A stretch of DNA of 64,000 nt, taken from the NCBI GenBank assembly GCA_027486845.1, contig JAIXOL010000028.1, positions 62,001 to 126,000 of the forward strand, given 5' to 3'. The DNA comes from Cytophagaceae bacterium. GTDB taxonomy: Bacteria; Bacteroidota; Bacteroidia; Cytophagales; Spirosomataceae. The translations under genes and the position numbers were made by a program. The notes beneath the pieces were generated by a model. It did not search any database. It was not told the DNA's origin and saw only the letters and a list, made by a program, of their open reading frames with translations. Below are positions 4,424 through 48,992 of this stretch, piece by piece (position 1 is the stretch's first letter; each line of letters begins with the position of its first letter).

Positions 4424-5120
4424 ATGCCCAAAAGTGATAGATATTTTGAACTGACTTTTCTGTGAAGCCACATTTTTCGTAAAATTTGCAAGCTTGAGCA
4501 TTATCAAGCTGAGTTGGTACATCAAGAGTATTTATATTTTTGGCTTTACAATACCGCATACAAGCATCAATCAGCGACATTCCGATACCTTTTCCCTGCA
4601 AAGTTTCATCTACCGCTATGAGCCCGATATTTGCGACTTTTTCCTTTATTCCCAAAGTTATCATTCCCTTTATTTGCTTATTTTCTTCATAGACAAACAC
4701 CTTTTTAGCAATTTGACGACTCACCGATTTATCAATCCATTCTCGGTATAAACGTTTGAAGTTTTCTATTTCTAAGTTTTCATCCAATCTAAAACGCGAG
4801 TATTTTCCACTCAAATAAGCTAATTCGTATAATAAATTGCCGTTTTTTTCTTGAAATTCATTAATTTCGACCGTGTTTTTAGTTTGCAAATCTTCGATTT
4901 GAGCAGTATATATAATTTTTTTATCAACTAATTTTCCGTTAAATTTTGAAAGAATCCGGTTCGGAATATCAGTGTTTTTATGTCCAAATACATAAACTAA
5001 ATCGTATTCTTGTTTAAACGCATTTTTGAGATTTTCGACTAAATTGAGGTAATCGTTTTTAAACTCAATTCTTCCGATTTTCTTATTGAAAAAATCACTA
5101 TCCCACGTAAGTTCTATCAT
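4422..5120 (-). CDS. GNAT-family N-acetyltransferase (RffC/WecD-like)
   Basis: A 232-residue protein whose N-terminal half (LTWDSDFFNKKIGRIE) and C-terminal GNAT fold resemble dTDP-amino-sugar acetyltransferases such as RffC/WecD. The acetyl-CoA site is seen as IAVDETLQGKGIGMSLIDA (Q/RxxGxG/A), followed by the typical FYEKCGF near the C-terminus. It probably acetylates an amino sugar used for surface glycans, but the substrate cannot be read from sequence. Its ATG overlaps the stop codon of the upstream glycosyltransferase by one base (TAATG), so the two are translationally coupled and likely act in one pathway. Confidence 0.75.
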   Translation of the reverse strand: MIELTWDSDFFNKKIGRIEFKNDYLNLVENLKNAFKQEYDLVYVFGHKNTDIPNRILSKFNGKLVDKKIIYTAQIEDLQTKNTVEINEFQEKNGNLLYELAYLSGKYSRFRLDENLEIENFKRLYREWIDKSVSRQIAKKVFVYEENKQIKGMITLGIKEKVANIGLIAVDETLQGKGIGMSLIDACMRYCKAKNINTLDVPTQLDNAQACKFYEKCGFTEKSVQNIYHFWA

Positions 5121-6040
5121 TAGAAATTGAGTTTTTGGTCGATAATATGAGCAGGACGGCCTTTTACTTGCTCGAAAGTTTTGCCTAAATAAATACCGAT
5201 AATGCCCAAAATAAATATAATTAAGCCTGAAAAAAAAGTAATAGAAATAATGATACTGGCAAAGCCTAATTGCTTGATTTGGTTGGTAAAATATAAATAT
5301 AGGTAAGCTACTCCTAAAAAAATCGCAATTACCGACATAATTAGACCCAAGCGTACGGTGAGCCGTAAAGGTTTATCAGAAAATGAAATGATATTATTGA
5401 AAGCAAGTTCGATAAGTTTTGACCATGTGTAAGAAGATTTTCCCGATGCTCGTTCATCATGTTTGACGGGTAAATACGCTTTTCGGAAACCAACCCACTG
5501 AGTCATAGTTGGAAAGAACCGAACGCGGTCGCCCAGACTTACAACTGCATCAACCACTTTTCGGTGGTAAATACCGAAATTAGCTACACTACTATCTTGC
5601 ACGGTATCTGTCAGATAACTGAAAACCTTATAGAATAATTTTGAAGAAAGTTTCTTGAAAAATCCGTCTTGGCGAACTTGACGTTGAGCAAAAACAAGTT
5701 CAAAGCCTTCTTTTGCTTTAGCCAGTAAATGAGGAATCTCATCGGGTCGGTCTTGAAGGTCACAGTCCATAACCACGACCCATTCCCCTTTTGAAGTGGC
5801 CAAACCTGCTGTAATTGCAGCGTGTTGACCAAAATTTCTACTAAGTTTTACGCCTTTAACTGTTTTATCTCGCTCACATACACTCAAAATAGCTTCCCAA
5901 GATTTATCTGGACTGCCATCTTCTACCAATATAATTTCATATGAATCAGTTATTAGCTTAACTGCTTGATGGATTTCTGTTACTAATTGTTGAACGATTT
6001 CTTCGGCTCTGTAAACGGGCGAAATAATAGATAAATACAT
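5120..6040 (-). CDS. family 2 glycosyltransferase with two C-terminal membrane spans (DPM1/GtrB type)
   Basis: It transfers a sugar, typically to a polyprenyl phosphate at the cytoplasmic membrane. The GT2 fold starts with MYLSIISPVYRAEE; I chose this ATG (6040) because the conserved fold begins there and the upstream extension has no family match. Visible motifs are LVEDGSPDKSW, MDCDLQDRPDEIP (the DxD-type metal site) and the VRFFPTMTQWVGF segment typical of GtrB/ArnC-like enzymes. Two membrane spans lie near residues 230-255 and 265-290. It is coupled to the acetyltransferase that follows. Confidence 0.88.
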   Translation of the reverse strand: MYLSIISPVYRAEEIVQQLVTEIHQAVKLITDSYEIILVEDGSPDKSWEAILSVCERDKTVKGVKLSRNFGQHAAITAGLATSKGEWVVVMDCDLQDRPDEIPHLLAKAKEGFELVFAQRQVRQDGFFKKLSSKLFYKVFSYLTDTVQDSSVANFGIYHRKVVDAVVSLGDRVRFFPTMTQWVGFRKAYLPVKHDERASGKSSYTWSKLIELAFNNIISFSDKPLRLTVRLGLIMSVIAIFLGVAYLYLYFTNQIKQLGFASIIISITFFSGLIIFILGIIGIYLGKTFEQVKGRPAHIIDQKLNF

Positions 6041-6106
6041 TCGGAAAGAGTTTTTACTGCAATATTCGTTACTTACAATTAGAGTGCCAAATGATTTACC
6101 GATGAT

Positions 6107-6137
6107 TTTAAAATATATTAATAAAACCGTAACTTTG
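6107..6137 (+). promoter_or_regulatory. candidate promoter for the SDR gene
   Basis: TTTA at 6107-6110, 19-base spacer, TAACTTTG at 6130-6137. It differs from the -33 consensus by one base and lies 20 bases before the SDR start, in the divergent gap with the glycosyltransferase. Confidence 0.55.
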
Positions 6138-6157
6138 GACACAAATAATACAAAGCT

Positions 6158-6946
6158 ATGAATCTTGACTTAACAGGAAAAACTGCCTTCGTATGCGGCA
6201 GCACACAAGGAATTGGAAAAGCCACAGCCATTGAATTGGCTCTTTTGGGGGCAAATATTACGCTTGTCGCTCGAAATGAAGATAAACTGAAAGCTGTCTT
6301 AGACGAATTACCACGCAAAAAAGGTCAAAAACACCGGTATCTTTTGATAGACTTCTCGAAAACTAATCAGATTAATTCTCGTATCGAGCGTCATTTATCA
6401 AAGTATCCCGAAGCACATATTCTGATAAATAATACAGGCGGACCTATAGGAGGGCCAGTGCTTCAGGCAAGTCCAGAGCTTTTTGTGCAAACTTTCAACG
6501 AACATGTTGTTTCGGCTCAAATCTTGACTCAATCCATTGCTCCAAGCATGATAAAAGCAGGTTTTGGACGAATCATTAATGTGACTTCGATTGGAATGAA
6601 ACAACCGATTATAGGTTTGGGAGTGTCGAATACCGTTCGTGGGGCAATGGGAAATTGGGCGAAATCAATGGCCAATGAGTTGGGGGAATATGGCATTACC
6701 ACCAATAATGTTTTGCCAGGCTACACAACGACTGCTCGTTTACAGAAAGTAAACGAAATGAAAGCTGGTTCGACAGGCAAACCAATTGCTGATGTTGAGC
6801 AAGATTTAATCAAAGATATTCCAATTGGGCGATTTACTACCCCGCAAGAAACGGCTGCCGTAATTGCATTCTTATGTTCGCCTGCGGCTGCCTCTGTCAA
6901 TGGTGTAAGTATTCCAGTTGATGGTGGTAAAACGAGTAGTTTATAA
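6158..6946 (+). CDS. SDR-family oxidoreductase lacking the usual catalytic Tyr/Lys
   Basis: The 262-residue protein has the SDR cofactor site (FVCGSTQGIGKA), the NNTGG motif in place of NNAG, a conserved Ser in INVTSIG, and a C-terminal IAFLCSPAAASVNGVSIPVDGG segment as in FabG-like enzymes. At the position of the active-site YxxxK, however, it has SNTVR, so both Tyr and Lys are replaced. This is a feature of the BKR-like SDR subgroup, known to have an imperfect catalytic tetrad. It is therefore probably not a standard ketoacyl reductase; substrate and even catalytic activity are open. It is monocistronic, with a promoter close upstream and a terminator after it. Confidence 0.85.
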   Translation: MNLDLTGKTAFVCGSTQGIGKATAIELALLGANITLVARNEDKLKAVLDELPRKKGQKHRYLLIDFSKTNQINSRIERHLSKYPEAHILINNTGGPIGGPVLQASPELFVQTFNEHVVSAQILTQSIAPSMIKAGFGRIINVTSIGMKQPIIGLGVSNTVRGAMGNWAKSMANELGEYGITTNNVLPGYTTTARLQKVNEMKAGSTGKPIADVEQDLIKDIPIGRFTTPQETAAVIAFLCSPAAASVNGVSIPVDGGKTSSL

Positions 6947-34307: not shown

Positions 34308-34759
34308 TAGCTCGTTTTTAGTTGCTTTCTTAAATTCTCAAATGTTTGCAAATGAGTTTTTTTTAGAATTGATGCAAAATAAACAATTAGTAAAGGATTT
34401 CCTTTTATTTCGATTCGTTCGGTTAAATTAAAAGCAGTATTTAAGCCATTTTCAGAAAAAACAAAGTCAATATTTAGTAAAAACGCACTTTTGATATGGC
34501 TGAAATATCGAATATGTTTCTGGGCTTCAAGTTCAATTACTTTAGCTTTATAAACTGGCTTGGTTTTTACGAAACCCAATAAAAACACTTTCTCCTTTAC
34601 CTCATAATTGGTACTATTTGGCTCGATTTTAGAAAGTTCTGTAACCTTTTTCATGTACGGATGAACATCTCCAAATTTTTTGAAGTTGAGGATATGTTCA
34701 TAGACATCATCAAATTTTCTATCGAAAGAATGATATAAAAGTAATGTTTTTTTTGCCAT
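34307..34759 (-). CDS. SRPBCC-like (START/polyketide cyclase fold) protein
   Basis: The 150-residue product (start at 34759, one base after the stop of the preceding esterase) reads as a SRPBCC fold: an N-terminal strand and helices (TLLLYHSFDRKFDDVYEHILNFKKFGDVHPYMKKV), a curved sheet (YEVKEKVFLLGFVKTKPVYKAKVIE, IRYFSHIKSAFLLNIDFVF) and a long C-terminal helix. Such folds bind hydrophobic ligands; no catalytic residues can be named. It is tightly coupled to the esterase before it and the acyltransferase after it. The ATG at 34837 would overlap the esterase gene by 77 bases and is unlikely. Confidence 0.65.
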   Translation of the reverse strand: MAKKTLLLYHSFDRKFDDVYEHILNFKKFGDVHPYMKKVTELSKIEPNSTNYEVKEKVFLLGFVKTKPVYKAKVIELEAQKHIRYFSHIKSAFLLNIDFVFSENGLNTAFNLTERIEIKGNPLLIVYFASILKKTHLQTFENLRKQLKTS

Positions 34760-34760
34760 T

Positions 34761-35942
34761 TTATTTTTTCTCCAAAAGTGCCATAACTTCTGCATCACCC
34801 AATACGGCATTAGCTGGACGTGGATGTTTTTCATCAAAAACTTGTAGTTCAGTTTGGGTCAAAACTTTATTAGCACTTTCGTCGATTTTTTCATCAACCA
34901 TTACTTTTTGTATGTCGAGTTTTAAATTTTTTGCCAAAAACGAATAAGCAGCTTGGCGTTTTGAAGGTCCATAATCGTGCTTTTCATTGGCGAGATGAAT
35001 ATTTGCCACCTTGTTTTCAGCACCAAAATACGAATAAACATTTTTGATGTAAGGATACTCCATCGTAGGCGTATTTACTGTCCAATCGCCACCATCTGAA
35101 ATCAAGAGGAGTGGTTTTGGAGCGAATGTAGCGGCAATTTCTACATTGCTTGTTTGATGAGTTGGTCGTTTATGAATTGGCATTCCGCTTTCGCAAGTGC
35201 AACCTCCAAAGAAATAACCCGAAACCATCACAACGGGTACGGAAACTTTAATGCGGTCGTCGATGGCAGCTAATAAAAACGTTTGTGTTCCACCACCAGA
35301 TTCGCCTGTAATGCCAATGCGATTTTTATCGATATTGGGTAAGTCGAGCAAGAAATCAAGAGCTGATTTGCTATTGATAATTTGTAGTTTTAGTGCTTTT
35401 TCTATTTTATGCATAGATTGTTTCGAATCGCCGACGCCAATCATATCATAAGCGAAAACAACGGCTCCCATACGAGCGAGCGTCGCACAACGTTGTTGAG
35501 TATAGGCCGCAAAACGTGGGTCGGGACCATGCCCATGCGGACATAAAATTCCCGCAGTTTTACCTTTGGATGTCAGACCGTTAGAATCGGTAGGACGATA
35601 CAAATTTCCTGTTACATAAATGCCCTCAATGCTCTGAAAAGATACATTTTCTACTGAATAACCATTCAAAGTTTTTTTGCTGTGAATGCTAATATTAGTT
35701 GGTTTTTTGAACTCATAACTACTTAATTCGGCACCATCCAAAATTCCCTGTCTGATTTCTTGAGCGTGTTTTTGCCAAGATTTTTTATCAGAATATCGCT
35801 TTGCAAAATCAGCGTGCAGGTTGTTTGCATCTTCTTCCGTAAAGAATTTGCCTTGGCAAAGGTCTGGCTTTTCGGGATTGTATTGAGCAAAACTTAATTG
35901 CCTTATGAACAGTAAAGAAAGTGTTAAGAAAGAGATTTTCAT
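34761..35942 (-). CDS. secreted alpha/beta hydrolase, acetyl-xylan-esterase-like
   Basis: A 393-residue exported hydrolase with signal peptide MKISFLTLSLLFIRQLSFAQ. The alpha/beta fold shows GILCPHGHGPDPRF near the oxyanion site, the nucleophile Ser in GITGESGGGTQTF, a likely catalytic Asp in ISDGGDWTVN, and His in NEKHDYGPSK. It resembles the acetyl xylan esterase/dienelactone hydrolase group found in polysaccharide loci, and probably removes acetyl or other ester groups from plant glycans. It is first in a three-gene unit with an SRPBCC protein and an E2-like acyltransferase. Confidence 0.82.
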   Translation of the reverse strand: MKISFLTLSLLFIRQLSFAQYNPEKPDLCQGKFFTEEDANNLHADFAKRYSDKKSWQKHAQEIRQGILDGAELSSYEFKKPTNISIHSKKTLNGYSVENVSFQSIEGIYVTGNLYRPTDSNGLTSKGKTAGILCPHGHGPDPRFAAYTQQRCATLARMGAVVFAYDMIGVGDSKQSMHKIEKALKLQIINSKSALDFLLDLPNIDKNRIGITGESGGGTQTFLLAAIDDRIKVSVPVVMVSGYFFGGCTCESGMPIHKRPTHQTSNVEIAATFAPKPLLLISDGGDWTVNTPTMEYPYIKNVYSYFGAENKVANIHLANEKHDYGPSKRQAAYSFLAKNLKLDIQKVMVDEKIDESANKVLTQTELQVFDEKHPRPANAVLGDAEVMALLEKK

Positions 35943-35972
35943 GGTTTTTTTAGGTTGAATAATTGGATGCTA

Positions 35973-46933: not shown

Positions 46934-47410
46934 TTATTCGTCCCAAGAAATATTTTCTAAGAAATCGAATATATAACGTTCATCATATTCGACTTCAAAA
47001 ACTTCTAAAAACTTGAGGTATTCTTCTCTGAATGTGTGTTTTTTATGGTGTTCTTCTTGGTTATTGATGTATTTGATAACAGTATCAATTTGAGAACGAC
47101 TGTAAGAAAATGCTCCGTAGTCCTTCTGCCATTTAAAGGCTTTATTTGAAAAGTTCTCTTTTATAAATTTATTAGAAGAAGTTTTAAGTTCTTCAACAAG
47201 ATTTGAAATTGTTGTTGCAGGATTATGCCCAACAAATATGTGAACGTGGTCAGGCATTCCGTTAATGACCAGCGGTTTTGAACCTAAATTTTTAATAATT
47301 CCACCTATGTAGGCGTATAATTCATTTTTCCATACCTTTTTTATTACATTTTCATGTCCTTGCACTGCAAAGATGATATGAATATAAATTTGGGAATAGG
47401 TATTTGCCAT
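46934..47410 (-). CDS. Y1/HUH transposase of the IS200/REP-associated (RAYT) type
   Basis: A 158-residue single-domain HUH nuclease: IYIHIIFAVQGHENVI at the N-terminus, the HUH motif in GMPDHVHIFVGHN, and the catalytic Tyr in VIKYINNQEEHHKK, with KWQKDYGAFSYSRSQ between, as in Bacteroidota IS200-like/RAYT proteins. Such enzymes cut and rejoin single-stranded DNA at hairpins. Directly upstream are three REP-like mini-hairpins inside a 22-bp inverted repeat. There is no accessory TnpB. I favour a domesticated REP-associated enzyme over an active IS, but cannot prove it. Confidence 0.85.
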   Translation of the reverse strand: MANTYSQIYIHIIFAVQGHENVIKKVWKNELYAYIGGIIKNLGSKPLVINGMPDHVHIFVGHNPATTISNLVEELKTSSNKFIKENFSNKAFKWQKDYGAFSYSRSQIDTVIKYINNQEEHHKKHTFREEYLKFLEVFEVEYDERYIFDFLENISWDE

Positions 47411-47441
47411 TATTAAATGTTTGTTTTTAACAGCGTGATTA

Positions 47442-47603
47442 TATTTCGGTGCGATGCACCTTAAAGTTTGTTTTGGTATGTATTTTCTACAAATATTTTG
47501 CGACTCTGCCGCTTTTCAAAACGCTTTTTATTGGTGCGTAGCACCCAAATATTTGTAGAAAAAAAGAATTTCTGACACCTCTAAGGTGCATCGCACCGAA
47601 ATA
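47442..47603. repeat. REP-like structure: nested inverted repeats with three GGTGC-NNN-GCACC hairpins
   Basis: Outer arms 47442-47463 and 47582-47603 are perfect 22-bp inverted copies. Inner arms 47483-47498 and 47547-47562 are perfect 16-bp copies (TTTTCTACAAATATTT and its complement). Three GGTGC-NNN-GCACC mini-hairpins lie at 47448-47460, 47533-47545 and 47585-47597, with loops GAT, GTA and ATC. The whole can fold as a branched cruciform directly upstream of the Y1 transposase gene. Confidence 0.9.
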
Positions 47604-47631
47604 AAAGTTTGGCTATATGTTAATTTAAACA

Positions 47632-48862
47632 TTACTGCTTTTGTTCGGATATTGAATGAATTATTGCTAACATTTCTTTTACTTTTTCTTCAAAATCAGA
47701 TTTAAAACTGCCGAATTTAATATTTTTTAAGGTTTCAAGGTCTTCCCAATTGGAGTAGTTATCGAAAAGTTGCCAAGTGAGATAATAAAGAGTTTCTTTC
47801 TGCACATTATTATCAAAATTACTTTTAATCAAGTCATAAGATTCTTTAAATTTAAAATTCTTATTAACGTTTTCATCATCAGAGCGAAACCCATAGCCGA
47901 ATCCAATATACCGTTTGGATGTTCGGAATTCAAAGCATAATTGTAGTTCAAGCTCTCGAATGCTATCATTGAAAAAATAGACTCTTTTCCACTCCTTATC
48001 GTCTAAATGTGATATATCTACATCTAAACTTAATTTTTTTGCTATTGAATCTATTAATGTTATAAAATCTTCTCTGATGATTTTTTTAACTATATTGTCA
48101 TAACTACACGATTTCGTGAGGTCAATATATGCCTCAAAACGTTCTTTATTTCCTACTATTTTTTCTAAAATATCTTCGCTCATCTTCGTGTTAATATTTT
48201 GACCAGTTAGTTTTTTTATCAGATTTATATAATGAGTAATAGCTTCCCTTAGGTTAGGAATACTTACAGATTCTTTCCTACATTCTTCTAACCAGTTTAT
48301 AATATCATTTTCGTATGAAATACACTCATAATCATTTTTATCAATATTCTTATCTTCACTTTCTTTACCATCTAATGTTAAATAAAAGAGTTTTCCACTC
48401 GGGTGATAGTTTCTATATCGTGTGAGTTGATTTGGCTGTTCAATTGCATAAATTTTATTCTCAATCATTATAACATTTTCTCCACTTCTAATAAGAATAT
48501 CTATTCTGCCCCCCCCCCGTGCATTTAGTACTTCTATTGAGAATGTCCATTTTGTCATCTTTGCATTCAGTAACTTGGCCAATAAAAAATTCTACATCTA
48601 CTTTTGCATTACTTGTATAAAACTTTTCAATTCCAAATCTTTCAATAAACTTCTTCAAAAAGACATCTTTCTGTCCATGACTACCTTTCGGATTTAATAA
48701 TTCTGCTAAAAATCTTGAATGAGTTTTTACTTCGTCAGATTCCATTTGAAGAACCGAGAAAATATTAAAATTTTCGCCAGTTGCCTCAGCTACTCGTTTA
48801 TAAGATTCTGAAATTGTCTGAATCTCATTTAATAATTGATTGATTGTGTTTAATTCTGCCAT
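47632..48862 (-). pseudogene. PD-(D/E)XK nuclease family protein, split by a frameshift at a run of ten G
   Basis: Two overlapping frames encode one protein. The N-terminal part (48862 down to 48488) starts MAELNTINQLLNEIQ and has SRFLAELLNPKGSHGQ; it shifts out of frame at the G-run (48518 to 48509) and stops soon after. The C-terminal part (about 48520 down to 47632) begins with GRIDILIRSGENVIMIENKIYA, which carries the nuclease Asp and the ExK-type ENK, then QPNQLTRYRNY. Nine G would join the two as a 409-residue protein of the PD-(D/E)XK_4-like type. As read, the product ends just before the catalytic residues. Phase variation, a fixed mutation and a sequencing error are all possible. Confidence 0.8.
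48509..48518 (-). repeat. homopolymer of ten G (minus strand) at the frameshift
   Basis: Ten consecutive C on the plus strand, by far the longest G/C run in this AT-rich window, exactly where the nuclease frame breaks. One base fewer restores the frame. Confidence 0.95.
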
Positions 48863-48961: not shown

Positions 48962-48992
48962 TGTAGAGACAGGGCATTGCCCTGTCTCTACA
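48962..48992. repeat. 31-bp near-perfect palindrome between nuclease and oxidoreductase genes
   Basis: TGTAGAGACAGGGCA (48962-48976) and TGCCCTGTCTCTACA (48978-48992) are perfect inverted arms around one base. It is followed by a short direct repeat TGCGACGAAA and a CCCCTTTAGGGGTTAGGGGT segment, both typical of dispersed intergenic sequence. Confidence 0.85.

What the first reader, a model, noticed from the sequence alone, without database searches (positions are those of the whole stretch)
47632..48862. Probable phase-variable PD-(D/E)XK nuclease switched by a poly-G tract
Seen: the nuclease gene is broken exactly at ten consecutive G (48518-48509, minus strand). With nine G the two halves join in frame into about 409 residues, and the catalytic Asp/ExK region (GRIDIL...IENK) begins right after the tract, so the ten-G state makes a catalytically dead stub. 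Known: long G tracts mutate by slippage and drive phase variation in several bacteria, and nucleases or restriction systems are common targets. Inference: this is an ON/OFF contingency locus, shown here in the OFF state, possibly an anti-phage nuclease. No other homopolymer of this kind is in the window.
Basis: partly seen in the sequence, partly recalled or inferred. Interest (0 to 1): 0.8.

Follow-up and report, generated by a model that had tools for sequence, protein, structure and literature searches.

The report
Nuclease gene frameshifted by ten Gs
A probable phage-defence nuclease gene in a bacterium related to Emticicia is cut in two at a run of ten Gs; its closest relative carries the gene unbroken there and without the run, so this is most likely a recent, possibly reversible slip of the DNA rather than an established on/off switch.

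Summary
In detail: a minus-strand gene is split exactly at ten G (48518-48509). Its halves match the start and end of Pfam PDDEXK_4 and of PADLOC candidate defence family PDC-S26; the stub lacks the catalytic Asp and ExK.

A syntenic orthologue in an Emticicia MAG (L094) is open through the site and has no G run there. Of 127 homologue loci, 125 hold a copy open across the motif. Three loci hold broken copies, none broken at a G run. The tract is private to this lineage as far as could be seen.

Both halves show purifying selection (dN/dS 0.14, 0.18), so the break is recent or reversible. In the genus, 3 of 4 coding G runs of 10 or more look out of frame, against 1 of 12 runs of 9, in genes of mixed function. 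This fits undirected slippage, or tract miscounting, better than a selected contingency locus. Reads or sister strains would decide; none were available.

By-product: an accessory-gene spot, empty in 8 of 10 congeners.

The parts
48488..48862 (-). N-terminal piece of the PDDEXK_4 / PDC-S26 nuclease gene (124 aa, ATG start; stop soon after the tract); carries the GENFNIF and HS..LLNPKGSHG motifs and the conserved VDVE strand, no catalytic Asp/ExK
   Evidence: ORF list; PF14281 1-57 E 4.5e-15; PDC-S26 PDLC04980 3-114 E 1.6e-39; collinear with orthologue L094
48509..48518 (-). tract of ten G at which the frame is lost; encodes the Gly residues just before the Arg-Ile-Asp motif
   Evidence: no G run in orthologue L094; no run above 6 at the site in 85 recognised homologues
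47632..48582 (-). C-terminal piece as listed (316 aa in the other frame; its own part is from about 48508 on): catalytic core GRIDIL...IENK and the C-terminal region
   Evidence: PF14281 75-183 E 4.7e-21; PDLC04980 102-386 E 2.9e-66
48499..48501 (-). codon of the invariant Asp (residue 28 of the C piece)
   Evidence: invariant columns of alignments A2 and A4
48454..48462 (-). codons of the invariant Glu-Asn-Lys (ExK)
   Evidence: invariant columns of alignments A2 and A4
48519..48574 (-). loop just before the tract, about 14 residues longer than in most homologues listed, shared with L094, low pLDDT in the model; a 25-nt direct repeat at 80% (48484-48508 / 48530-48554) spans loop and motif
46934..47410 (-). 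IS200-like (Y1) transposase gene in the same accessory stretch; not part of the nuclease
   Evidence: PF01797 E 8.2e-25

Best explanation
A single-gene PD-(D/E)XK nuclease of the PDDEXK_4 / PDC-S26 candidate phage-defence family sits at an accessory-gene spot of this Emticicia-like genome. In this lineage the codons of the conserved Gly-Gly-Arg motif became an unbroken G run. The run then changed length by polymerase slippage to ten, putting the catalytic half out of frame. As sequenced, the gene can make only a 124-aa stub without catalytic residues, so it is most likely off. Because G10 is slippery the loss is probably revertible, but nothing shows that the tract has been kept by selection as a switch. 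SHOWN: the split, the family, the orthologue open at the site without the tract, and purifying selection on both halves. INFERRED: slippage as cause, the off state, reversibility, and defence as function.
For: Both halves match consecutive parts of the same profiles. The syntenic orthologue L094 is open through the site without a G run. Of 127 homologue loci, 125 hold a copy open across the motif; L056 matched only in part, in one long open frame, and L072 had no match. Broken copies occur in three loci (L040 in-frame stop, beside an open copy; L156 second copy and L060, frame lost after the motif), none at a G/C run. No G run above 6 among 85 recognised distinct homologues. dN/dS against L094 is 0.137 (N piece, 114 codons) and 0.179 (C piece, 132 codons), so there is no sign of long decay. 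Coding G runs in 11 genomes of the genus are out of frame in 3 of 4 cases at length 10 or more and 1 of 12 at length 9 (Fisher p 0.027, post hoc, sorted by eye). In the own genome all 7 coding runs of 8 (of 8 in all) are in frame. A slip rate that rises with length predicts this. The genes hit include an aldose epimerase and probably an ABC transporter.
Against: A miscounted tract in the assembly would look the same; no reads were available. No second strain of the species was available, so a tract that varies and is selected within the species is not excluded. One of the 3 out-of-frame long runs (zinc-ribbon-like gene) was judged by eye without any homologue; without it the count is 2 of 3 and p rises to about 0.08 (hand calculation). 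The C piece is synonymously more diverged from L094 than the N piece and flanking genes (dS 0.72 against 0.25-0.30), so its history may include recombination.
Confidence: 0.55

Rival explanations
1. A true contingency locus: the G tract is maintained by selection as an ON/OFF switch of an anti-phage nuclease, caught here in the OFF state.
For: Tract length is in the range that switches genes in Campylobacter (PMC6321876); a poly-G switch in the phage-defence gene pglX is known (PMC4365076); candidate defence family; both halves are under purifying selection; three G runs of 10 or more in this genome, probably more than chance.
Against: No G run in the orthologue and none above 6 in 85 recognised homologues; out-of-frame long tracts in the genus are not concentrated in defence or surface genes. 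Congeners have only 0 to 5 runs of 9 or more, against 5-81 phase-variable genes per strain reported for Campylobacter, though two species there also have only two poly-G tracts, so a low number is not decisive.
Confidence: 0.2
2. Sequencing or assembly miscount of the G tract; the gene is intact in the cell.
For: Both coding G runs of 10 or more in this assembly look out of frame; frameshifted genes outside clusters of frameshifted relatives are likely indel mutations or sequencing errors (PMC3711429, passages); purifying selection on both halves.
Against: The assembly keeps genes open over other homopolymers: 32 of 60 A/T runs of 7 or more in the window lie well inside one open frame (the other 28 were not examined one by one). 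Of the overlapping frame pairs checked, the one with long A runs is two separate genes; one pair at 34310-35969 was not resolved. Out-of-frame tracts occur in other assemblies of the genus too, though those could be errors as well.
Confidence: 0.2
3. Programmed ribosomal frameshifting or transcriptional slippage at the G run makes some full-length nuclease from the ten-G gene, so the gene is dimmed rather than off.
For: A ten-base homopolymer directly at the frame change; both halves are conserved.
Against: No other locus examined changes frame at the motif and no slippery run is conserved; recoding signals are normally conserved (general knowledge).
Confidence: 0.05

Closest known systems
[quoted passage not shown]
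   Same: A G tract inside a phage-defence gene whose length change knocks out the gene (PMC4365076, passages)
   Different: There, switching both ways is reported (10^-2 to 10^-4, as cited in that paper) and the gene encodes a methyltransferase; here no length variation has been seen and the relatives lack the tract
Poly-G contingency loci of Campylobacter
   Same: Intragenic G tract in the 9-10 range with an out-of-frame state (PMC6321876, passages)
   Different: There, most species have many tracts, mostly variable between homologues in the core sets; here one gene in a genome with 4 G runs of 9 or more, tract not shared
PADLOC PDC-S26 (candidate defence family) / Pfam PF14281 PDDEXK_4
   Same: Both halves match consecutive parts of the profiles; same invariant residues
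   Different: 125 of 127 relatives' loci hold a copy open across the motif; this copy is split there and, like L094, has a longer loop before the motif
Solved PD-(D/E)XK nucleases such as Nt.BspD6I, McrC, Can2, and the unnamed protein AF1548 (1y88)
   Different: Middling Z; Foldseek had no match at E <= 0.001; no solved relative by sequence at E below 0.6

Membership tests
PF14281 PDDEXK_4 / PADLOC PDC-S26 | Profile match above the curated cut-off over the whole domain | tested here: met
   Pieces searched apart: PF14281 1-57 (56.5 bits) and 75-183 (76 bits), cut-off 22.3; PDLC04980 3-114 and 102-386 of 389 (PADLOC gives no cut-off)
PF14281 PDDEXK_4 / PADLOC PDC-S26 | PD-(D/E)XK catalytic residues (Asp, then Glu-x-Lys) encoded | tested here: met
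   Invariant Asp and Glu-Asn-Lys in A2 and A4, present in the C piece; not in the same open frame as the N piece
PF14281 PDDEXK_4 / PADLOC PDC-S26 | One uninterrupted gene (a property of a working member, not of descent) | tested here: not met
   Split at the tract; 125 of 127 homologue loci hold a copy open across the motif, three hold a broken copy
PF14281 PDDEXK_4 / PADLOC PDC-S26 | Anti-phage activity | not testable with these tools
   Candidate family only; no paper in the library names PDC-S26. Circumstantial: a neighbour cluster with a WYL-domain example in 19 of 80 loci and one with an HsdM-like example in 6 of 80
Slipped-strand contingency locus | Hypermutable repeat long enough to slip, inside the gene | tested here: met
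   G10; 7 or more G is the cut-off used for Campylobacter, 8 or more shown to switch. Its slip rate here is unmeasured
Slipped-strand contingency locus | Length change moves the downstream half out of frame | tested here: met
Slipped-strand contingency locus | Tract kept in orthologues (expected of a maintained locus) | tested here: not met
   L094 has no run there; no run above 6 in 85 recognised homologues
Slipped-strand contingency locus | Length variation between cells or strains, and reversibility | not testable with these tools
   One genome per species; no reads
Programmed frameshift gene | Two-frame arrangement and slippery site conserved among homologues | tested here: not met

The most novel reading that the evidence does not exclude
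This lineage of Emticicia has acquired a small set of poly-G switches (runs of 10, 12 and 13), one of which turns a single-gene PD-(D/E)XK candidate defence nuclease on and off. It would be a young contingency locus that arose when codons of a conserved Gly-Gly-Arg motif turned into a G run, caught at birth next to a tractless sister gene.
Probability: 0.17. Interest if true: 0.55.

Novelty: new member of a known kind. Interest (0 to 1): 0.3.

Why it matters
If the tract really switches, it would be a phase-variable single-gene defence nuclease in the Bacteroidota; no paper in the library names both Emticicia and phase variation. The pair of window and L094 would then show how a contingency locus can start, from a conserved glycine motif. 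If, as I think more likely, it is an incidental slip, it is a caution: a G tract at a frame break in one genome, even in a defence gene, does not make a contingency locus, and the closest orthologue is the quickest test. The accessory spot that holds different nuclease-like genes in different species may be of wider use.

Tried and rejected
Rejected: (1) a recent tandem duplication broke the gene. The loop lengthened by about 14 residues is also in L094, which is open there, so it predates the break; the 25-nt direct repeat around the tract (80%) is only mildly unusual (16 of 1725 adjacent window segments score as high). (2) Recombination between two paralogues joined out of frame: PF14281 finds only this gene in the genome, and L094 is collinear through the site. 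(3) Internal start giving an active C piece: it lacks the N-terminal part, including the conserved Glu; not tested by experiment. (4) Mutator strain: MutS and MutL profiles match full-length open frames. (5) Second homopolymer-split gene in the window at 4425-6169: two separate genes, a glycosyltransferase and an acetyltransferase.

Led nowhere: viral contigs (0 relatives), plasmids (1 record, only the transposase part matched), PHROGs (0 families for 3 proteins), solved structures by sequence (2 matches, E 0.6 and 0.87, taken as chance), papers on PDC-S26 (0), Emticicia with phase variation (0), PDDEXK_4 with phage defence (0). The search for PADLOC candidates in papers was seen as a listing only. 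The zinc-ribbon-like gene broken by G12 has no relative in 10 congeners, so its intact form could not be compared.

Corrected on re-check: a first count took the best frame of each locus and suggested that no relative was split (and my note); two searches showed broken copies in L040, L060 and L156.

Rows dropped before a count: 33 loci were not recognised by the motif pattern and not counted; the profile count covers them. Some loci among the 127 are the same gene fetched twice (115 distinct). A4, used for the fold, holds 30 of the 75 distinct genome contigs genes. The genome-contig scan kept the best 80 of 393 relatives.

Full report
What is there. On the minus strand a gene of the PDDEXK_4 nuclease family is split into a 124-aa frame (48862-48488) and a 316-aa frame (48582-47632) that overlap across a run of ten G at 48518-48509. 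The run is the only one of 8 or more G/C in the window; the next longest is 6. The halves, searched apart, hit Pfam PF14281 at profile positions 1-57 (E 4.5e-15) and 75-183 (E 4.7e-21), and the PADLOC candidate defence model PDC-S26 PDLC04980 at 3-114 (E 1.6e-39) and 102-386 of 389 (E 2.9e-66). The invariant Asp and Glu-Asn-Lys of the family lie only in the second half, so the frame that starts at the ATG ends without the active site. That PDC stands for phage defence candidate is recalled, not taken from a call.

The decisive relative. A scan of genome contigs (best 80 of 393 relatives kept) gave as its best hit L094 from the MAG Emticicia sp. EMPMRC01. It is a syntenic orthologue: the window from 52009 to 49048 aligns to it at 94.6% and the nuclease region (48945-48110) at 82.6%, with the same upstream neighbours (Gfo/Idh-like oxidoreductase, sugar isomerase-like and AraC-like genes; names by eye from the sequence). 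Its nuclease is open from the start through the site to the end of the contig (262 codons) and covers all of PF14281, 1-183. It has no G run at the site. This confirms that the frame before the tract is the native one, and it shows that the tract is not shared. L094 is cut by the contig end, so its last part was not seen, and its record could not be searched further. That the window itself is from an Emticicia-like bacterium is inferred from this match; no tool named it.

The wider family. A profile built from 44 homologues was run on the frames of 127 fetched homologue loci from the order, the phylum and genome contigs. In 125 the best frame is open across the motif; L056 is matched only in part, in one long open frame, and L072 has no match. 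The best frames are 115 distinct genes. A re-check of all hit frames found broken copies in three loci: L040 (an in-frame stop just before the motif, beside a second, open copy), L156 (a second copy that loses the frame after the motif) and L060 (frame lost well after the motif, judged by eye). None of these breaks has a G/C run of 5 or more near it. So broken members occur at a low rate, but the break at a G tract was seen only in the window. Among 85 distinct homologues recognised by a motif pattern the longest G run at the site is 6 (3 of 85), and none has 7 or more.

Context. The gene is absent from all 10 congeners examined, one of them only 81% complete. It sits between a Gfo/Idh-like gene and a large gene whose product begins with a ThuA-like stretch (name recalled). 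These two are near neighbours with no long gene between them in 8 of 10 congeners, while one congener has a PLD-like gene with a helicase-associated domain next to the Gfo/Idh gene and another has a PIN gene there. So this is an accessory spot with a taste for nuclease-like genes. In the window the nuclease shares it with a Y1 transposase. Among 80 relatives' loci, a neighbour cluster with a WYL-domain example recurs in 19 and one with an HsdM-like example in 6 (single linkage, only examples identified). This fits defence islands but proves nothing for this copy.

Is the gene decaying? Against L094, dN/dS is 0.137 for the N piece (114 codons) and 0.179 for the C piece (132 codons); flanking genes have 0.030 and 0.061. 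The C piece has no stop in 316 codons. Either the frame was lost recently or it is regained often. The dS of the C piece (0.72) is higher than that of the N piece (0.30) and the neighbours (0.25-0.27), which I cannot explain.

Is the tract part of a pattern? The own genome (82 contigs, 5.36 Mb) has four G runs of 9 or more: 9 (in frame in a gene), 10 (this one), 12 (apparently breaking the 3' end of a small zinc-ribbon-like gene) and 13 (just before a short frame, outside long genes). Of its 8 runs of exactly 8, 7 are in genes and all 7 are in frame. Seven of ten congeners have runs of 9 or more, up to five each and up to length 11. I sorted all 24 tracts of 9 or more by eye. Of 16 runs of 9, 12 are in genes and 1 of these is out of frame (L088; its pieces hit the membrane and the ATPase domain of an ABC transporter). 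Of 8 runs of 10 or more, 4 are in genes and 3 of these are out of frame: this nuclease, the zinc-ribbon-like gene (no homologue to confirm it), and an aldose 1-epimerase in L084, whose pieces hit one Pfam family apart. Fisher p is 0.027, post hoc and uncorrected; about 0.08 by hand if the unconfirmed gene is left out. The longer the run, the more often the gene is broken, and the genes are not of one class. That is what undirected slippage, or undirected miscounting of long tracts, would give. Mismatch repair looks intact: MutS and MutL profiles match open frames. The assembly keeps genes open over other homopolymers: 32 of 60 A/T runs of 7 or more lie well inside one open frame.

Comparison with what is known. 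Poly-G switching of a phage-defence gene is known from pglX (PMC4365076, passages read). Poly-G contingency loci are common in Campylobacter, with 5 to 81 phase-variable genes per strain and lengths peaking at 9 and 10, though two species there have only two poly-G tracts (PMC6321876, passages). A large survey of frame transitions takes frameshifted genes that do not cluster with frameshifted relatives as likely indel mutations or sequencing errors (PMC3711429, passages). By that yardstick this gene is such a singleton: it could work like a switch, but fails the test of a maintained one.

Verdict. The nuclease and candidate-defence reading is supported. The contingency-locus reading is possible (about 0.2) but not favoured; a recent incidental slip at a slippery tract is favoured (0.55), and a miscounted tract (0.2) cannot be excluded without reads. 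Programmed recoding is unlikely (0.05).

Noticed in passing
between about 46925 and 49052; L175-L184, L094: Accessory-gene spot between two conserved genes: no long gene there in 8 of 10 congeners, a PLD-like gene with helicase-associated domain in one (L177), a PIN gene in another (L179), the PDDEXK_4 nuclease with a Y1 transposase here and with a GIY-YIG gene in L094.
   Followed up: partly
47439-47606: Nested inverted repeats (28 nt at 93%, 16 nt at 100%) just downstream of the nuclease and beside the Y1 transposase gene, like a REP-type element with its transposase.
   Followed up: no
48962-48992: Perfect 15-nt inverted repeat with 1-nt spacer; a similar stretch lies next to the Gfo/Idh gene in congener loci L176 and L177.
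   Followed up: no
L031:2918-2929 (own genome contig C70): Run of twelve C in the coding strand seems to break the 3' end of a small zinc-ribbon-like gene that no congener has; a long A run ends the same gene.
   Followed up: partly
L030:2622-2634 (own genome contig C52): Run of thirteen G just before a short frame, downstream of a large gene that looks by eye like a type I restriction R subunit; a possible second unstable locus.
   Followed up: no
L084 and L088 (two congeners): Aldose 1-epimerase and ABC transporter genes apparently split at G runs of 10 and 9.
   Followed up: partly
L040, L060, L156: Other broken copies of the same nuclease family (in-frame stop or lost frame, no G run), two of them (L040, L156) beside an open copy.
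   Followed up: partly
48110-48508 against L094: Synonymous divergence of the C piece from the orthologue is more than twice that of the N piece and the flanking genes; possible recombination in the C-terminal half.
   Followed up: no
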